DNA from: Desulfobacteraceae bacterium
GTDB lineage: Bacteria > Desulfobacterota > DSM-4660 > Desulfatiglandales > HGW-15
DNA length: 19,680 bases
NCBI GenBank assembly: GCA_003819975.1
Contig: RPPU01000013.1
Coordinates: 1-19,680, forward strand
Direction of reading: 5' to 3'
Shown here: piece by piece, positions 346 through 19,680 of the stretch
How the letters are laid out: the number at the start of each line of letters is the position of its first letter
Position numbering within the stretch: the stretch's first letter is position 1
Translations under genes and position numbers: made by a program
Notes under the pieces: model-generated
Databases searched by the model: none
Told to the model about the DNA's origin: nothing
The model's input: only the letters and a program-made list of their open reading frames with translations

Positions 346-716
346 TACGATTTTTCACGTTCGTTCGAAATGACGGAGAAAGCGAATGAGTGTAGATACG
401 ATTTCTCACTGCGTTCGAAATGACGGAAGAACCATTCGAAATGACAGAAGGACCGTTCGGAATGGCGGAAGGAGAGGTCGAAATGACAGACGGAGAAAGC
501 GAATGAGTGCAGGTACGATTTCTCACTGCGTTCGAAATGACAGAAGGAGCGTTCGAAATGACAGAAGGAGCGTTCGAAATGACAGAAGGAGTATTCGAAA
601 TGCCGGCTTTTGTCATATCGAGCGAAGCGAGATATCGTATATTCCTATCATTCATTTGTGTTGCTCCTTATAATGAAAACACCTGTACGATTTCTCCCTG
701 GGGTCGAAATGACATA
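346..716. repeat. Five copies of a ~31-bp dispersed intergenic element
   Basis: Copies resemble TACGATTTCTCACTGCG followed by TTCGAAATGACAGA. Plus-strand copies lie at 346-377, 397-427, 514-544 and 686-716; an inverted copy lies at 611-639. The core (ATTTCTCnCTGCGnTCGAAATGACA) matches, from memory, a short repeat scattered between genes in many bacterial genomes. The 21-bp minisatellite unit is the right half of this element plus a few bases, so the array seems to have grown by slippage from one element. No transposase is present nearby. Confidence 0.75.
361..611. repeat. Composite minisatellite: 21-bp units in blocks of four
   Basis: Units of 21 bp (consensus GCGTTCGAAATGACAGAAGGA) start at 411, 432, 453, 474 and again at 528, 549, 570, 591. 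The two blocks of four are each preceded by the same 33-bp segment (378-410 and 495-527, two mismatches), so the higher-order period is 117 bp. A partial unit sits at 361-377. The last unit decays after its first half and runs straight into an inverted copy of the dispersed element. The array lies between tagJ and tssA, so it is probably transcribed within the T6SS operon. The 21-bp length keeps all frames open, which explains the spurious frames crossing it. Confidence 0.9.
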
Positions 717-725
717 AAATTCGGC

Positions 726-1541
726 TTACTGCTTATTTTCCAAAGGAACCCTATTATTAAAAACCATTTCCCGGATTTCCAATAGGCCGATTTCTTCTTC
801 ACCTACCTGGAATACATGTTGACCCATCCCCCTGCAGAAACCATTGCCCAACGGCAACCACTCGGTCGAATGGCCTAATTTTAAAAGATCGTTTTCCTGC
901 AGCCAGGATTCCGCGTAAAGAACCGGCAGAAAACCATTCAGGGTCAATCCTTCCCAGGTTGTGATCCGTCCCGGTATCCACAAGAGGTCCAGGAGCGTTT
1001 TGGGTGTCTCGATCGATAATTCCCGGATACATTCGAACGGAACGCGCAGATAACGGGTGTGGGCAAAAACCTCCAGAAAATAGGCCAAGCAGGAGTCCGT
1101 ATCTCTTATGCCGGAAAAGGTCTGACCGTTTAATGTTCCGGAGATAAGGGGGCGTTGCGCCTCAACTTGAGAAAATAGGGTTTCGGCTTGTTCCCATTCG
1201 GCGTGTTCCATTTTTTTACGAGCGTTTTCGTAAGTGTCAAAATAAGCAGGAAGTTCCGGGACAAAAGAGGGCTGTTTTTTGCCTTGATAGGCCTCAAGCC
1301 GTTCTTTTTCAGCCTGGACCAGGTTGAGGTAAACTTGAGCGCCCAGATCTTTTTCCATATCCTGTCCGGCGACAAGCTCTAATTGGCGCCGGGCCTTATC
1401 CCATTCTCCATAAAGGGCCAGGACTTGAAACAATAATGTTCTGGCTTTAAAGTCGGAAGGGCTCGATTTGACTTTATCGTTCAGGCATTTTCGGGCCTCG
1501 GCCAGATTACCGGCTTTGATCATTTCCCGAACATTATCCAT
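726..1541 (-). CDS. tagJ: TagJ/ImpE-family T6SS accessory protein
   Basis: This 271-residue protein matches the ImpE/SciE (TagJ) family in length and layout. Its N-terminal half is helical and TPR-like (AGNLAEARKCLNDKVKSSPSD). The C-terminal half has the family signatures: SGTLNGQTFSGIRDTD at about 134, LLWIPGRI at about 186, TEWLPLGNGF at about 226 and GMGQHVFQVGEEE at about 238. In studied systems TagJ contacts the sheath protein TssB and assists ClpV-driven recycling. The start at 1541 is chosen over the upstream ATG at 1592 because AAGGAG sits five to six bases before it; the extra 17 residues would overlap the predicted promoter. It lies between tagF and tssA, a usual position. It has its own -10 box and direct-repeat array upstream. 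Confidence 0.9.
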   Translation of the reverse strand: MDNVREMIKAGNLAEARKCLNDKVKSSPSDFKARTLLFQVLALYGEWDKARRQLELVAGQDMEKDLGAQVYLNLVQAEKERLEAYQGKKQPSFVPELPAYFDTYENARKKMEHAEWEQAETLFSQVEAQRPLISGTLNGQTFSGIRDTDSCLAYFLEVFAHTRYLRVPFECIRELSIETPKTLLDLLWIPGRITTWEGLTLNGFLPVLYAESWLQENDLLKLGHSTEWLPLGNGFCRGMGQHVFQVGEEEIGLLEIREMVFNNRVPLENKQ

Positions 1542-1574
1542 TTCAACTCCTTTTTTTGTGCAGCTATAATGTAA

Positions 1575-1642
1575 ATTATAGTGACATGCCATATCAGATC
1601 ATTCGTACAAATTCGTCACATAAGCGTCACGCCGATGTCTCA
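1575..1642 (-). promoter_or_regulatory. tagJ promoter with 11-bp direct repeats
   Basis: Read on the minus strand, consecutive 11-bp units are TGAGACATCGG (1642-1632), CGTGACGCTTA (1631-1621), TGTGACGAATT (1620-1610), TGTACGAATGA (1609-1599) and a weaker TCTGATATGGC (1598-1588). They are followed by a perfect TATAAT at 1580-1575. The hexamer 17 bp upstream of it (AATGAT) is a poor -35, so the promoter probably needs an activator. The -10 lies in an inverted repeat, CTATAAT-GTAA-ATTATAG (1564-1581). Predicted leader to the tagJ ATG is about 27 nt. The repeat cores match the array at 11686-11751. Confidence 0.5.
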
Positions 1643-1746
1643 GAATGATAATTGTGCAAATAAAGTCACATTTTTATTCTTCTTTTTTACACTCTGATGG
1701 CAGGATTAAGAAAAGGCTTTTCCCATTAAGGAAGATAGCCTTAATG

Positions 1747-11553: not shown

Positions 11554-11685
11554 GGAAGAATCTTAATATGTAAAAATTATATCGAGAAGAGTTTAGCGTA
11601 AGAAAATAAATTCAGACCAAATTGAGATAAAAAAAACCTATAATCGAATTCATGAAAAATAGTTGACGAAGCAAGGAGATTGTTT

Positions 11686-11760
11686 TGTGATCATCTCGTG
11701 ACGTTTGCGTTATGATTCCGTGACGATTGCGTGATGTCTGCATGATACGAGCTTTATAAA
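11686..11760 (+). promoter_or_regulatory. Six 11-bp direct repeats plus -10 box before the 131-residue orphan
   Basis: Consecutive 11-mers are TGTGATCATCT (11686), CGTGACGTTTG (11697), CGTTATGATTC (11708), CGTGACGATTG (11719), CGTGATGTCTG (11730) and CATGATACGAG (11741). Columns 3 (T) and 5 (A) are invariant and column 4 is G in five. Three bases later comes TATAAA (11755-11760). The hexamer 17 bp upstream of that box, TGATGT, is not a usable -35, so the array occupies the place where an activator would act. Eleven-bp direct repeats over the -35 are the known operator form of SARP regulators, and such a gene starts at 18563. Confidence 0.6.
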
Positions 11761-11829
11761 AATCGACTATACGGTAAAAATGTTTTCAATTAAAAATTAT
11801 TTCAAAGATGCATCAAAGGGAGGAATGAA

Positions 11830-12225
11830 ATGCAAAAACCGCTTAATGCTATTATTCAATTTGAGGGTCCCGAACGAATCTATCCCGGTAATGAATTACC
11901 GGATTATTATTCGAGTAATCCCGAATTGAAGAACGTAAAACGGATCGGATCGTTTCGCATTCCAACCTTTATTTTTTATCGAGGCAGGCGGTTTGATTTT
12001 GATAAATTATTGCGACAAATAGCAAAAGAAAACGGGGGCAGACCGGATTTTCCGCAGATCAGAAACGCCATCAACAACGCCTTGGCCTTTTTATTGGGCG
12101 CAGCCGAATCGTGGGTTCATCGACCTCACGAACCCGTTTATTTGGACGATTTAATGCAATTTCATTTAGAGCAAACATTAGGCCTCTTAGTAGGGCAGAT
12201 TAAGACCAGGTCGGTAAATATTTAA
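11830..12225 (+). CDS. Orphan 131-residue protein downstream of the 11-bp repeats
   Basis: I do not recognise this family. The product is soluble, with no signal peptide or membrane helix. It contains FRIPTFIFYRGRRFDFDKLLRQIAKE (about 44-69), a helical middle rich in Asn/Ala, and a C-terminal YLDDLMQFHLEQTLGLL helix. The ATG at 11830 has GGGAGG six bases upstream, a strong ribosome-binding site, and the predicted promoter gives a leader of about 63 nt, so the gene looks real and well expressed. It is divergent from the T6SS operon and convergent with the putative metallopeptidase, separated from that by only 34 bp. Sharing a repeat-type promoter with tagJ suggests a T6SS-linked role, for instance an accessory or secreted partner. 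That is inference. Confidence 0.75.
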   Translation: MQKPLNAIIQFEGPERIYPGNELPDYYSSNPELKNVKRIGSFRIPTFIFYRGRRFDFDKLLRQIAKENGGRPDFPQIRNAINNALAFLLGAAESWVHRPHEPVYLDDLMQFHLEQTLGLLVGQIKTRSVNI

Positions 12226-12259: not shown

Positions 12260-12895
12260 TCAACAAATCTCGGTAAGTAAGTTAAGGATGATATTCTCTT
12301 CCGTGATGGATTCATATTTTTTTCTATCCTTCAACTTAACAAAATCACGCAGCTCGTAAAACAAAGATCGATCATATAAAATTTTATCCGGAAAAGGAAG
12401 AGACCCTTTTTCCCGATAATGCAACATAAGCATATCCGTAAAAATATCGGTTTTGCAATTGGTATGAAATTTAAGCCATCGTACCTGACCTATTTTTTTA
12501 TCCATTTTTTTCGGATCCATCTTTTGATTTTTCATATTCATAATAGCTTTCTCGTAATCAAAAAGCACGCGTTGCGGCATTAAATAAATATAACGGAAAT
12601 GACATAATTCGTGAAGAGCGGTTGATAAAAGCAATTCAGGAGTTCCGATCAGCTCGGATTTATTGATGAGGATGGCATCATGGGTACGGCCAATCTTATC
12701 TATGAAGGTTTCAAAGACAAAGTTGAGTAAGTCCGGGTATTTTTTATACATGATTTTGCTGAAAAATATTCCGTCATCTTGATAAAATGAGCAAAAGGCA
12801 CCGGCGTCTTCCCCGTCAAAAATCTTGATACCCGTGGCGATGATTCTTGTTTTTAGTAATTCATATTCTTGGATGTAATACACATGAGTTGTCAT
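12260..12895 (-). CDS. Putative HEXXH metallopeptidase-like protein
   Basis: The 211-residue product carries HELCHF at 95-100 within a predicted helix (LLLSTALHELCHFRYIYL), the HExxH arrangement by which zinc peptidases bind metal (His95, His99) and place the catalytic Glu96. The third ligand is not certain; His144, Asp150 or Asp154 are candidates. No signal peptide or membrane helix is present, as would be expected for a T6SS-delivered effector or a cytoplasmic enzyme. AGAGGG lies five bases before the ATG. The gene is AT-rich compared with the T6SS genes and stands alone between two spacers. A single motif does not prove activity; it could also be an anti-sigma/ImmA-like protease. No partner immunity gene can be named, though the gene at 13203-13826 is the nearest co-oriented candidate. 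Confidence 0.55.
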   Translation of the reverse strand: MTTHVYYIQEYELLKTRIIATGIKIFDGEDAGAFCSFYQDDGIFFSKIMYKKYPDLLNFVFETFIDKIGRTHDAILINKSELIGTPELLLSTALHELCHFRYIYLMPQRVLFDYEKAIMNMKNQKMDPKKMDKKIGQVRWLKFHTNCKTDIFTDMLMLHYREKGSLPFPDKILYDRSLFYELRDFVKLKDRKKYESITEENIILNLLTEIC

Positions 12896-14011: not shown

Positions 14012-16411
14012 TCAGTTCAAAGATATGATCTTTGGAGGACTATCGCCGGATTTGGTTTGGACGGTTTTCCGCCTTTCTTTGGAAAAATGAGTTTGCATGA
14101 ACGTAACGATATCGGATTCATCATAGTTGATATGCAGTTTGTTTTTTAGATGCGTAAGATCATCATGTAGTTCCTGCGCATGTTGATAACGATGCTCACG
14201 GTCTTTGGCCAGACATTTCATGACGATATCGTTCAGTTCCATGGGCAATTCCGGTTTGATTTCGTTGATGGGAGGGATGTCCATTTTGGGAATGGTTTTC
14301 AGAGCGTCCATTTCGCTTTTAAAATTTTGAGCGATTTTTCCCGTTAAAAGCGTATAGGAGACTAGGCCGAGCGAATAGAGATCGGTCTGATGGTTGATCG
14401 GTTTTCCCAATACTTGTTCCGGTGTAAGATAAGCGAGTTTTCCCTTGATCGTGTCGTCATGCGCCAAAGGTCGGGTTCCGCCGATGGCCGCCCGGGAAAT
14501 GCCGAAATCGCTGATTTTGACTTCACCCTGAAATGAAACCAGAATGTTCTCCAGGCTGATGTCGCAATGAACCACGTTTAACGGTTCGCCGGTGGTATCG
14601 TCCTTTTTTGAGTGGGAGTAGTCCAAGCCCCGGGCGATTTTTGATATAATGTACATCGATTGAGCCATGGACAAGCCCGTTCCGAATCGCGTCAAAATTT
14701 CGCCTAGGTTTTTTCCTTCCACATATTCCATGGCCATAAAATAAACGTTTTCGATGCTTCCAAAATCGATGGTTTGTACAATATTGGGATGCCGCAGCAG
14801 CGCCGCCACCCGGGCTTCATGGATGAACATTTTAATGAAATCCGGATGCTCCGCCAGGTGCGGTCGAATTTTTTTTATGGCCACTATTTTACGGAAACCG
14901 TCCTCGCGAAGGTAATCGGCCAGAAAAAGTTCGGCCATGCCGCCCTGTCCGATTTTATTAAGTAAAATATAGGGGCCGATTTTCGTCAACCCTTCCATTC
15001 GTTTTTGGGATTGCAAAGCCTTGGCTTTTGAAGTCCGAATAATCCAGGCTATGATTGCCGCCGACAACAGCATATTGAATAGGAACCCGATCATTAAAAA
15101 CAGGCGATAGCGACGAATAGGGCCATGCAATAATTCGGATGAAAAAACAAAATATACTTTTCCGATTTTTTCGTCTAAAAAGCGGATATCCCGGGAAATA
15201 TGAAAGACCGTGCGCTCATCGGGTCCTAGCCCGTATTCAAACAAAGTTCCTTCCATGATTTTTACGGTTTCGGCATTTTTTAAAGGGGGCAAGGAGTGCG
15301 TGATCATCGCGGGTTCGGTGTGGGCGACGATTTTACCTTGATGGTCCACTATGATCACGGATAATAATCGGGGTTCTCCGCCATAATCGCCGACAGCCAT
15401 GTTCATTCTCAACAGATCTTCTTGCAGTAGTGGCATTCCGATTTTGTCGGCCAACCCATAAGTCAGAGAATAACCTTTCCGATAAAAAGCGGAATAGAGA
15501 CCGGAAACCGATGTATGGTAAATGTAAAAGGCGCCCAGATTGATCAAAAACCAGACGGCCAGACAGAGGCTTATTTGTTTTTTGTTACGGCTTATAGCTT
15601 CCCGTTCAAGGATTTTTCGATAAAGGTGCAAAAAAGTGATGGTGGAAAATTGTTTAATCCACCAAATCGTTTTGGATAAGCGGTTATTTCCATTCGAATC
15701 CGTGATTTCCGCGGACGTTGAGATCGTCTTTTTTTGACGAAACAGTCTATTTTTCAGCAAAAAGAGAAAAGAAAAATTCGGTATTGGAATGCGATATCCA
15801 AATAAGGGCCATCTCAGGATCGTATGACGATTCACATAAACCCAAACGCCCACCGGCCATAACAGAATCATGACGCTGAAGAGATAAAGGGCTGTAAAAC
15901 CTGTTTCGATATGATTCAATTTCGACGCGTGCAGCGAGAAGTGCAACTGCCCGATCTGGGCGCCGGACGATCGGATTCCGCTGGAAAAACAGATCAGTTT
16001 CCGACTAGCGGAAGAGCGGATTTCTTTGGAAAAAACATCATCGAGGATGATCATCGACGGCATTTGCGTAAGAGAAAAACATAGACTATCTTTAGCGGCC
16101 GACGTGACGATTTTATTGTCGCTATCCAAAACGACATAGGCTGCGACATCCGCGCGTTTTATGAAATCGTCGATTAAAACGTGAACGTTTTGAAAGTCTT
16201 TTTTTAATAGAGGGGGGGTTATAAGGCTTGAGATTTGTTTGGATAGAAGCACTCCGGATCGATGGATATCATTTTGCGCATGGTTCCGATATAATTGCAA
16301 GCAACCATAGACAAGGAAAATAAAACTGACCCAAAAGGCCAAGTATTTGACAAGCCATTTTTTAAATCCTTTGAATTCAAACATCGCTTGGGTCATTTTC
16401 CGTTGCTTCAT
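14012..16411 (-). CDS. Transmembrane Ser/Thr kinase with duplicated sensor module, non-RD
   Basis: The 799-residue protein has two TM-sensor-TM modules followed by a cytoplasmic kinase. Helices lie at about 21-41, 170-193, 280-300 and 436-458, enclosing extracytoplasmic segments 42-169 and 301-435. The kinase domain (about 480-755) shows GQGGMAEL (488-495), VAIK with Lys513, Glu532 in helix C, HCD with catalytic Asp617, Asn622, DFG (635-637) and TPE (663-665). All catalytic residues are present, but Arg of HRD is Cys616, making it a non-RD kinase. A kinase beside a T6SS recalls the PpkA threonine-phosphorylation pathway, yet here the kinase is C-terminal, unlike PpkA, so the symbol is not used. 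No cognate phosphatase is seen. Start ATG 16411 has GGAAGA ten bases upstream; strong promoter at 16465-16437. It is divergent from the LysM/TPR lipoprotein. Confidence 0.9.
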   Translation of the reverse strand: MKQRKMTQAMFEFKGFKKWLVKYLAFWVSFIFLVYGCLQLYRNHAQNDIHRSGVLLSKQISSLITPPLLKKDFQNVHVLIDDFIKRADVAAYVVLDSDNKIVTSAAKDSLCFSLTQMPSMIILDDVFSKEIRSSASRKLICFSSGIRSSGAQIGQLHFSLHASKLNHIETGFTALYLFSVMILLWPVGVWVYVNRHTILRWPLFGYRIPIPNFSFLFLLKNRLFRQKKTISTSAEITDSNGNNRLSKTIWWIKQFSTITFLHLYRKILEREAISRNKKQISLCLAVWFLINLGAFYIYHTSVSGLYSAFYRKGYSLTYGLADKIGMPLLQEDLLRMNMAVGDYGGEPRLLSVIIVDHQGKIVAHTEPAMITHSLPPLKNAETVKIMEGTLFEYGLGPDERTVFHISRDIRFLDEKIGKVYFVFSSELLHGPIRRYRLFLMIGFLFNMLLSAAIIAWIIRTSKAKALQSQKRMEGLTKIGPYILLNKIGQGGMAELFLADYLREDGFRKIVAIKKIRPHLAEHPDFIKMFIHEARVAALLRHPNIVQTIDFGSIENVYFMAMEYVEGKNLGEILTRFGTGLSMAQSMYIISKIARGLDYSHSKKDDTTGEPLNVVHCDISLENILVSFQGEVKISDFGISRAAIGGTRPLAHDDTIKGKLAYLTPEQVLGKPINHQTDLYSLGLVSYTLLTGKIAQNFKSEMDALKTIPKMDIPPINEIKPELPMELNDIVMKCLAKDREHRYQHAQELHDDLTHLKNKLHINYDESDIVTFMQTHFSKERRKTVQTKSGDSPPKIISLN

Positions 16412-18258: not shown

Positions 18259-18562
18259 GTGTTGGAGTCAAGAAAGCCTGGACTCAAACTCCATGACGAC
18301 CCTTTAATCCGGACAAGTCGGAATCTCGCGTTCCGTAGGGATATCGGTAGCATCTTAATCGGTATAACGGCAGAAAAGATAACTTATTGATATCTAAGGT
18401 TTTATTGTTAGGAGAGGATTTTAATCGCAAAAGCCATGCCCAGTATCAAATTTGACATTCTTTTCATAATCTTCTATAGTCCCATTTTTAGAAAAGAACA
18501 TTCGAAATTGTAATAATGAACGTTTCTCATAATAACCTGCCTGAGATAAGATAGGGAGAGAC
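18246..18562. other. Spacer between lipoprotein and regulator genes
   Basis: These 317 bases contain no gene I can support. Besides the possible terminator at the left end, GAGTC/GACTC arms at about 18265-18285 could form a small hairpin without a T run. The regulator promoter lies at the right. No 11-bp GTGAC-type repeats are visible here, so there is no sign of self-regulation by that element. Confidence 0.5.
18452..18480 (+). promoter_or_regulatory. Promoter of the SARP-type regulator gene
   Basis: TTGACA (18452-18457), 17 bp, TATAGT (18475-18480): a close sigma70 match (11 of 12). Transcription would begin near 18487, about 76 nt before the ATG. Confidence 0.65.
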
Positions 18563-19680
18563 ATGTCCTATCTGAGATTTTTTTTATTCGGTCTACCCCG
18601 CATTGAGCGTGAAGGCCATCTTCTATCCATCAACCGCCGCAAATCCCTGGCGTTAGCCGCGTACCTGGCCTTGAACCGGGAACCCCAAAGCCGTGACACG
18701 CTGGCCACATTTCTTTGGCCGGAATTCGATCAAAACACGGCCCGCGCTTCTTTGAGGACTACGCTCTGGCAACTGCGAAAACTTTTTGGGCCCGATATTC
18801 TTAAAATTGAACGGGAACATGTTGTTTTTATTCGAAGCCCTCTTTTTTGGGTTGACGTTAATCAGTTTCAAGATCTCGCGGCGGGATATAAATCGTCTGA
18901 ACATCCTGAGAGCGCCATAGACCCCGCGGGCATCCATTCATTGGCCCAAGCCGTTGAATTATATCGGGCTGAATTTATGGCGGGTTTTTTTCTCCAGGAT
19001 TGTGAACCTTTTGAAGATTGGAAGAGATCCCAAATCGACGGTTTAACTCGTGCCTTGATCGGTGCTCTGGGAAGACTGGTTGATTTTCATGATTCAATGA
19101 AAGCTTATGAACAAGCGGCTCAATACGCCCGTCATTGGCTAAAAACAGACCCTTTGGATGAGTCGGCCCATGGGCGTCTGATGAAGCTTTATTTGAAAAT
19201 GAATCAACCGGCCTCTGCTTTGCGCCAATATGAAGAATGCGTTCAAGTCCTGGGCACGGAACTTAACACAGAACCTCAAGAATTCTTAAAAAAATTGTAT
19301 CAAGACATTAAAAAACAGCGTACCATTTCGCAAACGGATGTTTCTCGGAAAGATCAACCGATCGTGTCGGTACCGAATAGATCCATGCAAACGGGGTTTT
19401 GCATAGGCAGGAAAAAAGAGCGCACCGAAATTTCCAAACTTTTGGCCGACCCGAACTGTCGATTGCTTAGTTTAACCGGTTTAGGCGGGATCGGGAAGAC
19501 CGTTTTGGCCCAGCAGGCCTTAATGGATAGCGCCGGAGCATTTGCCGATGGGGTGTGTTTCATTTCTTTAACCCATGTGAAATCTTTCGATTGGATTTCT
19601 CCCGCCATTGCAGAGGCGCTGAAACTCTCTTTTCCAATGGAAGAGGACCCCCAAAAATTGCTGATTCACCATATGGGGCA
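18563..19680 (+). CDS. SARP/AfsR-type regulator (winged helix, BTAD, NB-ARC), 3' end outside window
   Basis: The frame is open from ATG 18563 (GGGAGAG about five bases upstream) to the window edge, giving 372 residues. Residues 4-100 are an OmpR-like winged helix: RFFLFGLPRIE, RRKSLALAAYLAL, SRDTLATFLWPE, ARASLRTTLWQLRKLFG, then VDVNQF. Residues about 100-255 form the all-helical BTAD (ELYRAEFMAGFF, LKTDPLDESAHGRLMKLYLKMNQPASALRQYEEC). A linker leads to IGRKKERTEI and Walker A GLGGIGKT (306-313), the start of an NB-ARC/STAND ATPase. This order is that of AfsR-like activators, which bind 11-bp direct repeats overlapping the -35. TPR or other sensor repeats probably follow outside. Its target is unknown; the two 11-bp repeat arrays in this window are candidates. 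Confidence 0.88.
   Translation, partial: MSYLRFFLFGLPRIEREGHLLSINRRKSLALAAYLALNREPQSRDTLATFLWPEFDQNTARASLRTTLWQLRKLFGPDILKIEREHVVFIRSPLFWVDVNQFQDLAAGYKSSEHPESAIDPAGIHSLAQAVELYRAEFMAGFFLQDCEPFEDWKRSQIDGLTRALIGALGRLVDFHDSMKAYEQAAQYARHWLKTDPLDESAHGRLMKLYLKMNQPASALRQYEECVQVLGTELNTEPQEFLKKLYQDIKKQRTISQTDVSRKDQPIVSVPNRSMQTGFCIGRKKERTEISKLLADPNCRLLSLTGLGGIGKTVLAQQALMDSAGAFADGVCFISLTHVKSFDWISPAIAEALKLSFPMEEDPQKLLIHHMG

What the first reader, a model, noticed from the sequence alone, without database searches (positions are those of the whole stretch)
11686..11760. Six-unit 11-bp direct repeat array at an activator-type promoter
Six consecutive 11-mers (consensus C-G-T-G-A-T/C-G-W-T-T-G) end three bases before TATAAA, with no acceptable -35. 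Period 11 places every unit on the same face of the helix, which is the operator architecture known for SARP (AfsR/DnrI-type) activators but not an expected element of T6SS loci. It suggests cooperative binding and control of the orphan gene at 11830. A competing reading is TTGACG (11663-11668), 17 bp, TGTGAT, which would place the array downstream and make it repressive.
Basis: partly seen in the sequence, partly recalled or inferred. Interest (0 to 1): 0.75.

Follow-up and report, generated by a model that had tools for sequence, protein, structure and literature searches.

The report
Six-repeat activator site near T6SS genes
A row of six 11-base repeats in front of an unknown gene beside a bacterial secretion system looks like a landing strip for a common kind of gene activator, and a weaker copy in front of a second gene suggests that both may be switched on together.

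Summary
The array is real: six 11-bp units at 11686-11751, three bases before TATAAA, no -35; none of 1000 intergenic or 200 window shuffles reached it. A weaker, less certain copy lies before impE (minus strand, 1653-1588), also before a -10 without a -35.

The SARP reading fits the layout, not the evidence on who binds. The five closest SARP homologues carry a different 11-bp repeat (CGTYCC) before their own genes; CGTGAY was found at 0 of 29. The window's SARP has a predicted TTGACA-17-TATAGT promoter.

The units fit YGTNAY (1 mismatch in 36), close to the published Desulfovibrio PhoB box (c/t)GT(n)AC (PMC3333781). Of 22 loci with CGTGA arrays, 9 have an OmpR/PhoB-family regulator nearby, against 3 of 80 T6SS loci.

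Best reading: a long OmpR/PhoB-type activator operator replacing the -35 of orf131 and, more weakly, of impE. The regulator is not in the window; its genome is not held. Against it: likeness to arrays elsewhere is almost confined to the core, and raw genome counts do not single out the 11-bp period.

The parts
11686..11751 (+). array 1: six 11-bp direct-repeat units starting at 11686, 11697, 11708, 11719, 11730, 11741; core YGTNAY
11755..11760 (+). -10 element TATAAA of the orf131 promoter; no -35 (predicted)
11818..11823 (+). ribosome-binding site GGGAGG of orf131 (read by eye)
11830..12225 (+). orf131: 131 aa orphan, no family, no homologue found; presumed target gene
   Evidence: single-sequence model mean pLDDT 45, uninformative
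1588..1653 (-). array 2 (weaker): minus-strand units starting at 1653, 1642, 1631, 1620, 1609, 1598; the three from 1642 to 1610 are the clear ones
1575..1580 (-). -10 element TATAAT upstream of impE; best -35 candidate 3 of 6 (predicted)
726..1592 (-). impE (ImpE family); true start probably ATG at 1541, behind GGAG at 1550-1547 (inferred)
18563..19680 (+).
18452..18480 (+). promoter of the SARP-like gene, TTGACA-17-TATAGT, without an array (predicted)

Best explanation
The array is an activator operator for an OmpR/PhoB-family winged-helix response regulator encoded elsewhere in the genome. Monomers would bind head to tail, one per 11-bp unit (core YGTNAY), all on one face of the helix; six units would take up to three dimers. 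The last unit starts 14 bp before TATAAA, where a -35 should be, so the bound regulator would recruit sigma-70 polymerase and transcription of orf131 would depend on it. The weaker array before impE would give the same signal a lower, graded hold on a T6SS accessory gene. Shown: array 1, its phase, the -10 elements without -35, and the linkage of CGTGA arrays to OmpR/PhoB-type systems in other genomes. Less certain: array 2. Inferred: binding, activation, the identity of the regulator, co-regulation.
For: Array 1 is non-random. Against YGTNAY, a degenerate form (last base C or T) of the Desulfovibrio vulgaris PhoB box (c/t)GT(n)AC (PMC3333781, passages), it has 0 mismatches in five units and 1 of 36 in six; the best at period 11 in 80 T6SS loci are 5 and 7. 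Array 2 has the same orientation towards its gene and also a -10 without a -35. Pattern search, 4 x CGTGA at 11 bp, up to 2 mismatches: 10 places in 8 of 192 genomes against 2 places for the reversed pattern; 23 places in 18 of 395 genomes against 3. Regulator near 9 of 22 such loci against 3 of 80 T6SS loci (8 against 3 and 8 against 4 with two other regulator queries); 6 of 19 without the loci that donated queries. msrA/msrB near 7 of 22 against 0 of 80. Regulator, kinase, array and msr genes occur together in L152, L153 and L155, in part in L151 and L154. Not chosen by pattern: the regulator homologue of G236 (L199) is followed by its kinase, two units (CGTGACACTTT TGTGAAATTTG, by eye), TATAAA, an ORF and msrAB; L204 (G398) has such arrays between a PhoB-like and a PstC-like gene. 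T6SS control by this regulator class is known: VxrB (PMC4441509, abstract), OmpR (PMC3686713, abstract).
Against: No such regulator in the window; genome not held. Period controls are mixed: 2 of 192 genomes at 10 bp, 14 of 192 at 12 bp (many visibly simple repeats, coding not checked), so raw counts do not single out 11 bp. Outside the core, on which the loci were selected, the window profile scores 19 of 22 arrays below zero. 13 of 22 array loci show no regulator match; 6 of 22 arrays lie inside a mechanically called ORF of 90 aa or more; L157 is a long repeat field. The loci were chosen: G016, G036 and G485, tandem or low-complexity hits, were not fetched at +/-5 kb, and the T6SS loci are a convenience control. 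In the 20 regulator-chosen regions the 11-bp excess is clear at 2 mismatches (3 places against 0) but not at 3 (8 against 1-5). Pst promoters lack the G-centred form YGTGAY x3 (0 of 29 with at most 1 mismatch), so PhoB itself is not indicated. Array 2: a three-unit place in L033 scores 18.3 against 17.5, and other periods reach 21.6 for four units. Unit-to--10 distance differs: 14 bp (array 1), 18 bp (array 2).
Confidence: 0.58

Rival explanations
1. The array is the operator of the SARP-like regulator at 18563, perhaps controlled by the Ser/Thr kinase at 14012-16411 as AfsK controls AfsR (the AfsK-AfsR link is recalled).
For: Only recognised DNA-binding regulator among the window ORFs scanned. 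SARP sites have 11- or 22-bp phase with the 3' repeat 8 bp from the -10 (PMC10936776, passages); here a heptamer core (11741-11747) ends 7 bp before TATAAA. The five closest of 29 SARP homologues have an 11-bp repeat before their gene, so this subfamily probably uses 11-bp repeats.
Against: Those repeats are CGTYCC; CGTGAY at 0 of 29. No array at the window SARP's own promoter. No SARP match in 22 array loci or 80 T6SS loci. The four genomes with the best SARP homologues have no 4 x CGTGA array.
Confidence: 0.15
2. The array is a repressor or dual-function operator: it lies inside or downstream of the promoter TTGACG(11663)-17-TGTGAT, or a regulator on it blocks the -10 at 11755.
For: TTGACG is 5 of 6 to consensus, TGTGAT 4 of 6. 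ArcA, of the same regulator family, has such repeats at repressed as well as activated operons (PMC3798270, passages).
Against: TGTGAT lacks the -10 A at position 2, and the promoter scan, which asks for it, does not list the pair. The better -10 (TATAAA) has no -35, as in activator-dependent promoters.
Confidence: 0.12
3. The array serves the leftward T6SS operon (orf653 and onward); GTNAC is its own reverse complement, so the site could be read in either direction.
For: It lies in the 397-bp region shared by orf653 (minus) and orf131 (plus). The reverse strand of the same place also scores well against YGTNAY (best of the minus strand, 2 mismatches in four units).
Against: No -10 at a fitting distance on the minus strand (by eye); about 254 bp to the orf653 start against 79 bp to orf131; array 2 has the same orientation towards its gene.
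Confidence: 0.08
4. The array is not a promoter element: iterons of a mobile element, or chance.
For: It lies in a block (orf131, orf211, orf207) between two genes that are neighbours in L002 and L013. L157 shows similar repeats in a long field (by eye).
Against: No replication or transposase family in the 15 ORFs scanned with Pfam; chance excluded for array 1; exact placement before a -10; a second copy before impE, outside the block.
Confidence: 0.05

Closest known systems
PhoB boxes (E. coli CTGTCAT; Desulfovibrio vulgaris DVU1083 (c/t)GT(n)AC)
   Same: Head-to-tail direct repeats of about one helical turn and a near-identical half-site YGTNA(C/T) (PMC4415409, PMC3333781, passages).
   Different: Six units; the variable base is mostly G; the D. 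vulgaris spacing is given as 6 bp + 4 bp; no phoB or pst gene recognised in the window.
ArcA-type multi-repeat sites (OmpR/PhoB family)
   Same: Two to five direct repeats, mostly at 11 bp (PMC3798270, passages).
   Different: Six units, other half-site.
SARP/AfsR boxes
   Same: 11-bp phase, poor -35, repeat close to the -10 (PMC10936776, passages).
   Different: The afs box has two repeats; the closest SARP homologues here carry CGTYCC.
OmpR and VxrB control of T6SS
   Same: A response regulator controlling T6SS genes (PMC3686713, PMC4441509, abstracts).
   Different: Here the presumed targets are an orphan gene and impE, in an unnamed lineage whose T6SS relatives are mostly uncultured, many of them Desulfobacterota.

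Membership tests
OmpR/PhoB-type operator | Tandem direct repeats at about 11 bp | tested here: met
   0 of 1000 and 0 of 200 shuffles
OmpR/PhoB-type operator | Half-site like a validated box of the family in a related lineage | tested here: met
   YGTNAY, 1 mismatch of 36; box from PMC3333781. YGTNAY relaxes the last base of the published box to C or T and was set after seeing the array
OmpR/PhoB-type operator | Site takes the place of the -35 before a -10 | tested here: met
   by sequence only
OmpR/PhoB-type operator | Similar arrays linked to regulator genes of the family elsewhere | tested here: met
   9 of 22 against 3 of 80; G236 and G398 not chosen by pattern. Against: period-12 control, likeness confined to the core
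OmpR/PhoB-type operator | Regulator in the same genome binds it | not testable with these tools
   genome not held
Pho box proper | Same form as pst promoters of related genomes | tested here: inconclusive
   5 of 29 pst promoters have YGTNAY x3 at 11 bp with at most 1 mismatch (0-1 at other periods); 0 of 29 have YGTGAY x3 with at most 1
SARP box | 11- or 22-bp repeats with the 3' repeat about 8 bp from the -10 | tested here: met
   7 bp for a heptamer core; rule from PMC10936776
SARP box | Repeat sequence shared with promoters of close SARP homologues | tested here: not met
   CGTYCC in the 5 closest, CGTGAY in 0 of 29
SARP box | Bound by the SARP | not testable with these tools
   needs protein

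The most novel reading that the evidence does not exclude
The array is a six-site operator of the NB-ARC SARP in the window, controlled through the neighbouring Ser/Thr kinase: an AfsK/AfsR-like switch adopted by a non-actinobacterial T6SS, acting on an orphan gene and impE.
Probability: 0.1. Interest if true: 0.65.

Novelty: new member of a known kind. Interest (0 to 1): 0.35.

Why it matters
It would place an orphan gene and a T6SS accessory gene of an unnamed bacterium under one two-component signal, with a strong and a weak operator, and it gives a concrete half-site to test. It also corrects the regulator assignment: the 11-bp phase alone does not identify a SARP. The CGTYCC repeats before the closest SARP homologues are a separate candidate for the operator of this non-actinobacterial SARP group.

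Tried and rejected
Conservation of the array in T6SS relatives: nothing comparable to array 1 in 80 loci, de novo or by profile. Homologues of orf131: only itself among 9 candidates; 0 of 80 T6SS loci. Single-sequence structure of orf131: mean pLDDT 45, not searched further. CGTGA arrays near SARP homologues: none within the 30 loci held, none reported in the four wider ones by the de novo scan, 0 of 29 in the upstream test (L090 could not be placed). PhoB itself as the binder: inconclusive (for minus-strand hits I assumed the full 1500-base flank). Excess of the 11-bp period by genome counts: not clean, because 12 bp gives more genomes. Match of the window profile to other arrays outside the core: poor. 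In one search I took the wrong side of loci with minus-strand hits; one search replaces it. Rfam and tRNA scans: nothing.

Full report
Observation. In this register 95 of 165 pairwise positions agree, reached by 0 of 1000 shuffles of the intergenic region and 0 of 200 of the window; the best six-unit register nearby starts at 11676 with 101. No hexamer 15-19 bp upstream of the -10 matches TTGACA at more than 3 of 6 positions. The units are degenerate; Tandem Repeats Finder sees 3.5 copies.

A second array. A profile of the six units, with array 1 masked, finds one outstanding place in the window: minus strand, 1653-1610, upstream of impE. For three units (17.5) and four units (20.6) no shuffle of 300 reached it, for two units (16.5) 5 of 300 did; periods 7-18 other than 11 score lower in the window. 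Among the 80 related T6SS loci one three-unit place scores as high (L033, 18.3), the best four-unit place at 11 bp scores 13.1, but other periods reach 21.6. Against YGTNAY it has 4 mismatches in five units and 6 in six, against 5 and 7 for the best of 80 loci at 11 bp; other periods there reach 3 and 5, and for three and four units it does not stand out. It lies before TATAAT (1580-1575), again without a -35. It is probable, not certain. The impE ORF start at 1592 is probably too early: GGAG at 1550-1547 precedes ATG at 1541 (by eye).

Surroundings. ImpE, TagF, TssM (IcmF), DotU, TssK and TssJ are recognised on the minus strand. Orf653 has matches in 55 of 80 related T6SS loci and the kinase in 7 of 80; in L002 and L013 the two are neighbours, whereas here about 2.6 kb with orf131, orf211 and orf207 lies between them. 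These three have no family and no match in the 80 loci; orf131 found only itself in the protein collection. Many of the T6SS relatives are titled Deltaproteobacteria or Desulfo-; the window's own genome is not held.

Is the SARP the binder? SARPs have an OmpR-type DNA-binding domain and sites of 11- or 22-bp phase, the 3' repeat 8 bp from the -10 (PMC10936776, passages), so the architecture fits. The sequence evidence does not. Of 192 genomes 58 have a homologue at E 0.001. Of 30 homologue loci 29 could be placed; upstream of these the five closest homologues have CGTYCC twice at 11 bp with at most one mismatch (periods 9, 10, 12 and 13: 1, 0, 2 and 1 loci), and none has CGTGAY at periods 9-13 (sequences). 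The window's SARP has TTGACA-17-TATAGT and no array. No SARP match lies in the 22 array loci or the 80 T6SS loci.

What carries such arrays elsewhere? Four CGTGA at 11 bp with up to 2 mismatches: 10 places in 8 of 192 genomes, reversed control 2 places; 23 places in 18 of 395, control 3 (the genome sets overlap, 25 genomes in all). Period controls are mixed: 10 bp 2 of 192 genomes, 12 bp 14 of 192, many of the latter visibly simple repeats; coding was not checked. The counts alone prove little. In 22 of the 25 genomes, fetched at up to +/-5 kb, an OmpR-type regulator matches in 9 of 22 loci against 3 of 80 T6SS loci (Fisher p 3e-5; 6 of 19 and p 0.0014 without loci that donated a query; L154 is a partial match), and msrA/msrB in 7 of 22 against 0 of 80. 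Domains were confirmed for examples: response regulator plus Trans_reg_C, histidine kinase, PMSR plus SelR. Against this: 13 of 22 show no regulator, 6 of 22 arrays lie inside a mechanically called ORF, and outside the core the window profile scores only 3 of 22 arrays above zero, so these sites share a class of half-site with the window, not necessarily one regulator.

Tests not chosen by pattern. Twenty regions taken by regulator homology (139 kb): three CGTGA with at most 2 mismatches gives 3 places at 11 bp and 0 at 9, 10, 12 and 13; one of three control cores gives 1 at 11 bp; at 3 mismatches the excess blurs (8 against 4, 4, 5 and 1). In G236 the order is regulator, kinase, CGTGACACTTT TGTGAAATTTG, TATAAA, another ORF, msrAB. 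In G398 the arrays lie between a PhoB-like gene (266 bits, cut-off 296) and a PstC-like gene (196.4, cut-off 196.45), one unit being TGTGACGTTTG against CGTGACGTTTG in the window.

Link to a validated box. In Desulfovibrio vulgaris the PhoB box is a direct repeat of (c/t)GT(n)AC (PMC3333781, passages). Taken as YGTNAY, array 1 has 0 mismatches in five units and 1 of 36 in six; the best of 80 T6SS loci at 11 bp have 5 and 7. In 29 pst promoters YGTNAY x3 with at most one mismatch occurs in 5 at 11 bp and in 0-1 at other periods, but the G-centred form of the window does not. I therefore file the array as an OmpR/PhoB-type operator, not as a Pho box.

Mechanism. Head-to-tail monomers on six units at the -35 position would recruit polymerase to TATAAA; multiple repeats at 11 bp are usual in this family (PMC3798270 and PMC4415409, passages). 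Binding, activation and the regulator's name are inferred. T6SS control by response regulators has precedents (PMC4441509, PMC3686713, abstracts). Paper searches on SARPs with T6SS and on OmpR-type direct repeats (listings only, 12 of 181, 3 of 3 and 10 of 17 papers shown) showed none that I recognised as describing this array.

Verdict. A real and well-formed activator operator, probably of a common kind, with one interesting addition (the probable impE copy) and a corrected assignment of the likely binder.

Noticed in passing
L082-L086 (wider: L122-L125), 86-103 bp upstream of the SARP start: The five closest homologues of the window's SARP carry CGTYCC direct repeats at 11 bp upstream of their own genes: a candidate autoregulatory box of this SARP group.
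   Followed up: partly
L152, L153, L155, L199: Order response regulator, histidine kinase, 11-bp repeat site, msrA/msrB: a probable two-component control of methionine sulfoxide reductase.
   Followed up: partly
window 12260-12895 (-): Orphan orf211 (211 aa) contains HELCH, a zinc-protease-like HExxH motif (by eye, motif recalled); no family found.
   Followed up: no
window 372-602: 117-bp and 21-bp tandem repeats with CGAAATGACAGAAGGA-like units next to the T6SS operon.
   Followed up: no
window 1564-1581 (-): Near-palindrome CTATAATTTACATTATAG over the impE -10, possibly a second operator (by eye).
   Followed up: no
L157 3062-3160: Long field of CGTGACA repeats of mixed spacing beside a primase-like ORF (by eye, recalled likeness), possibly iterons.
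   Followed up: no
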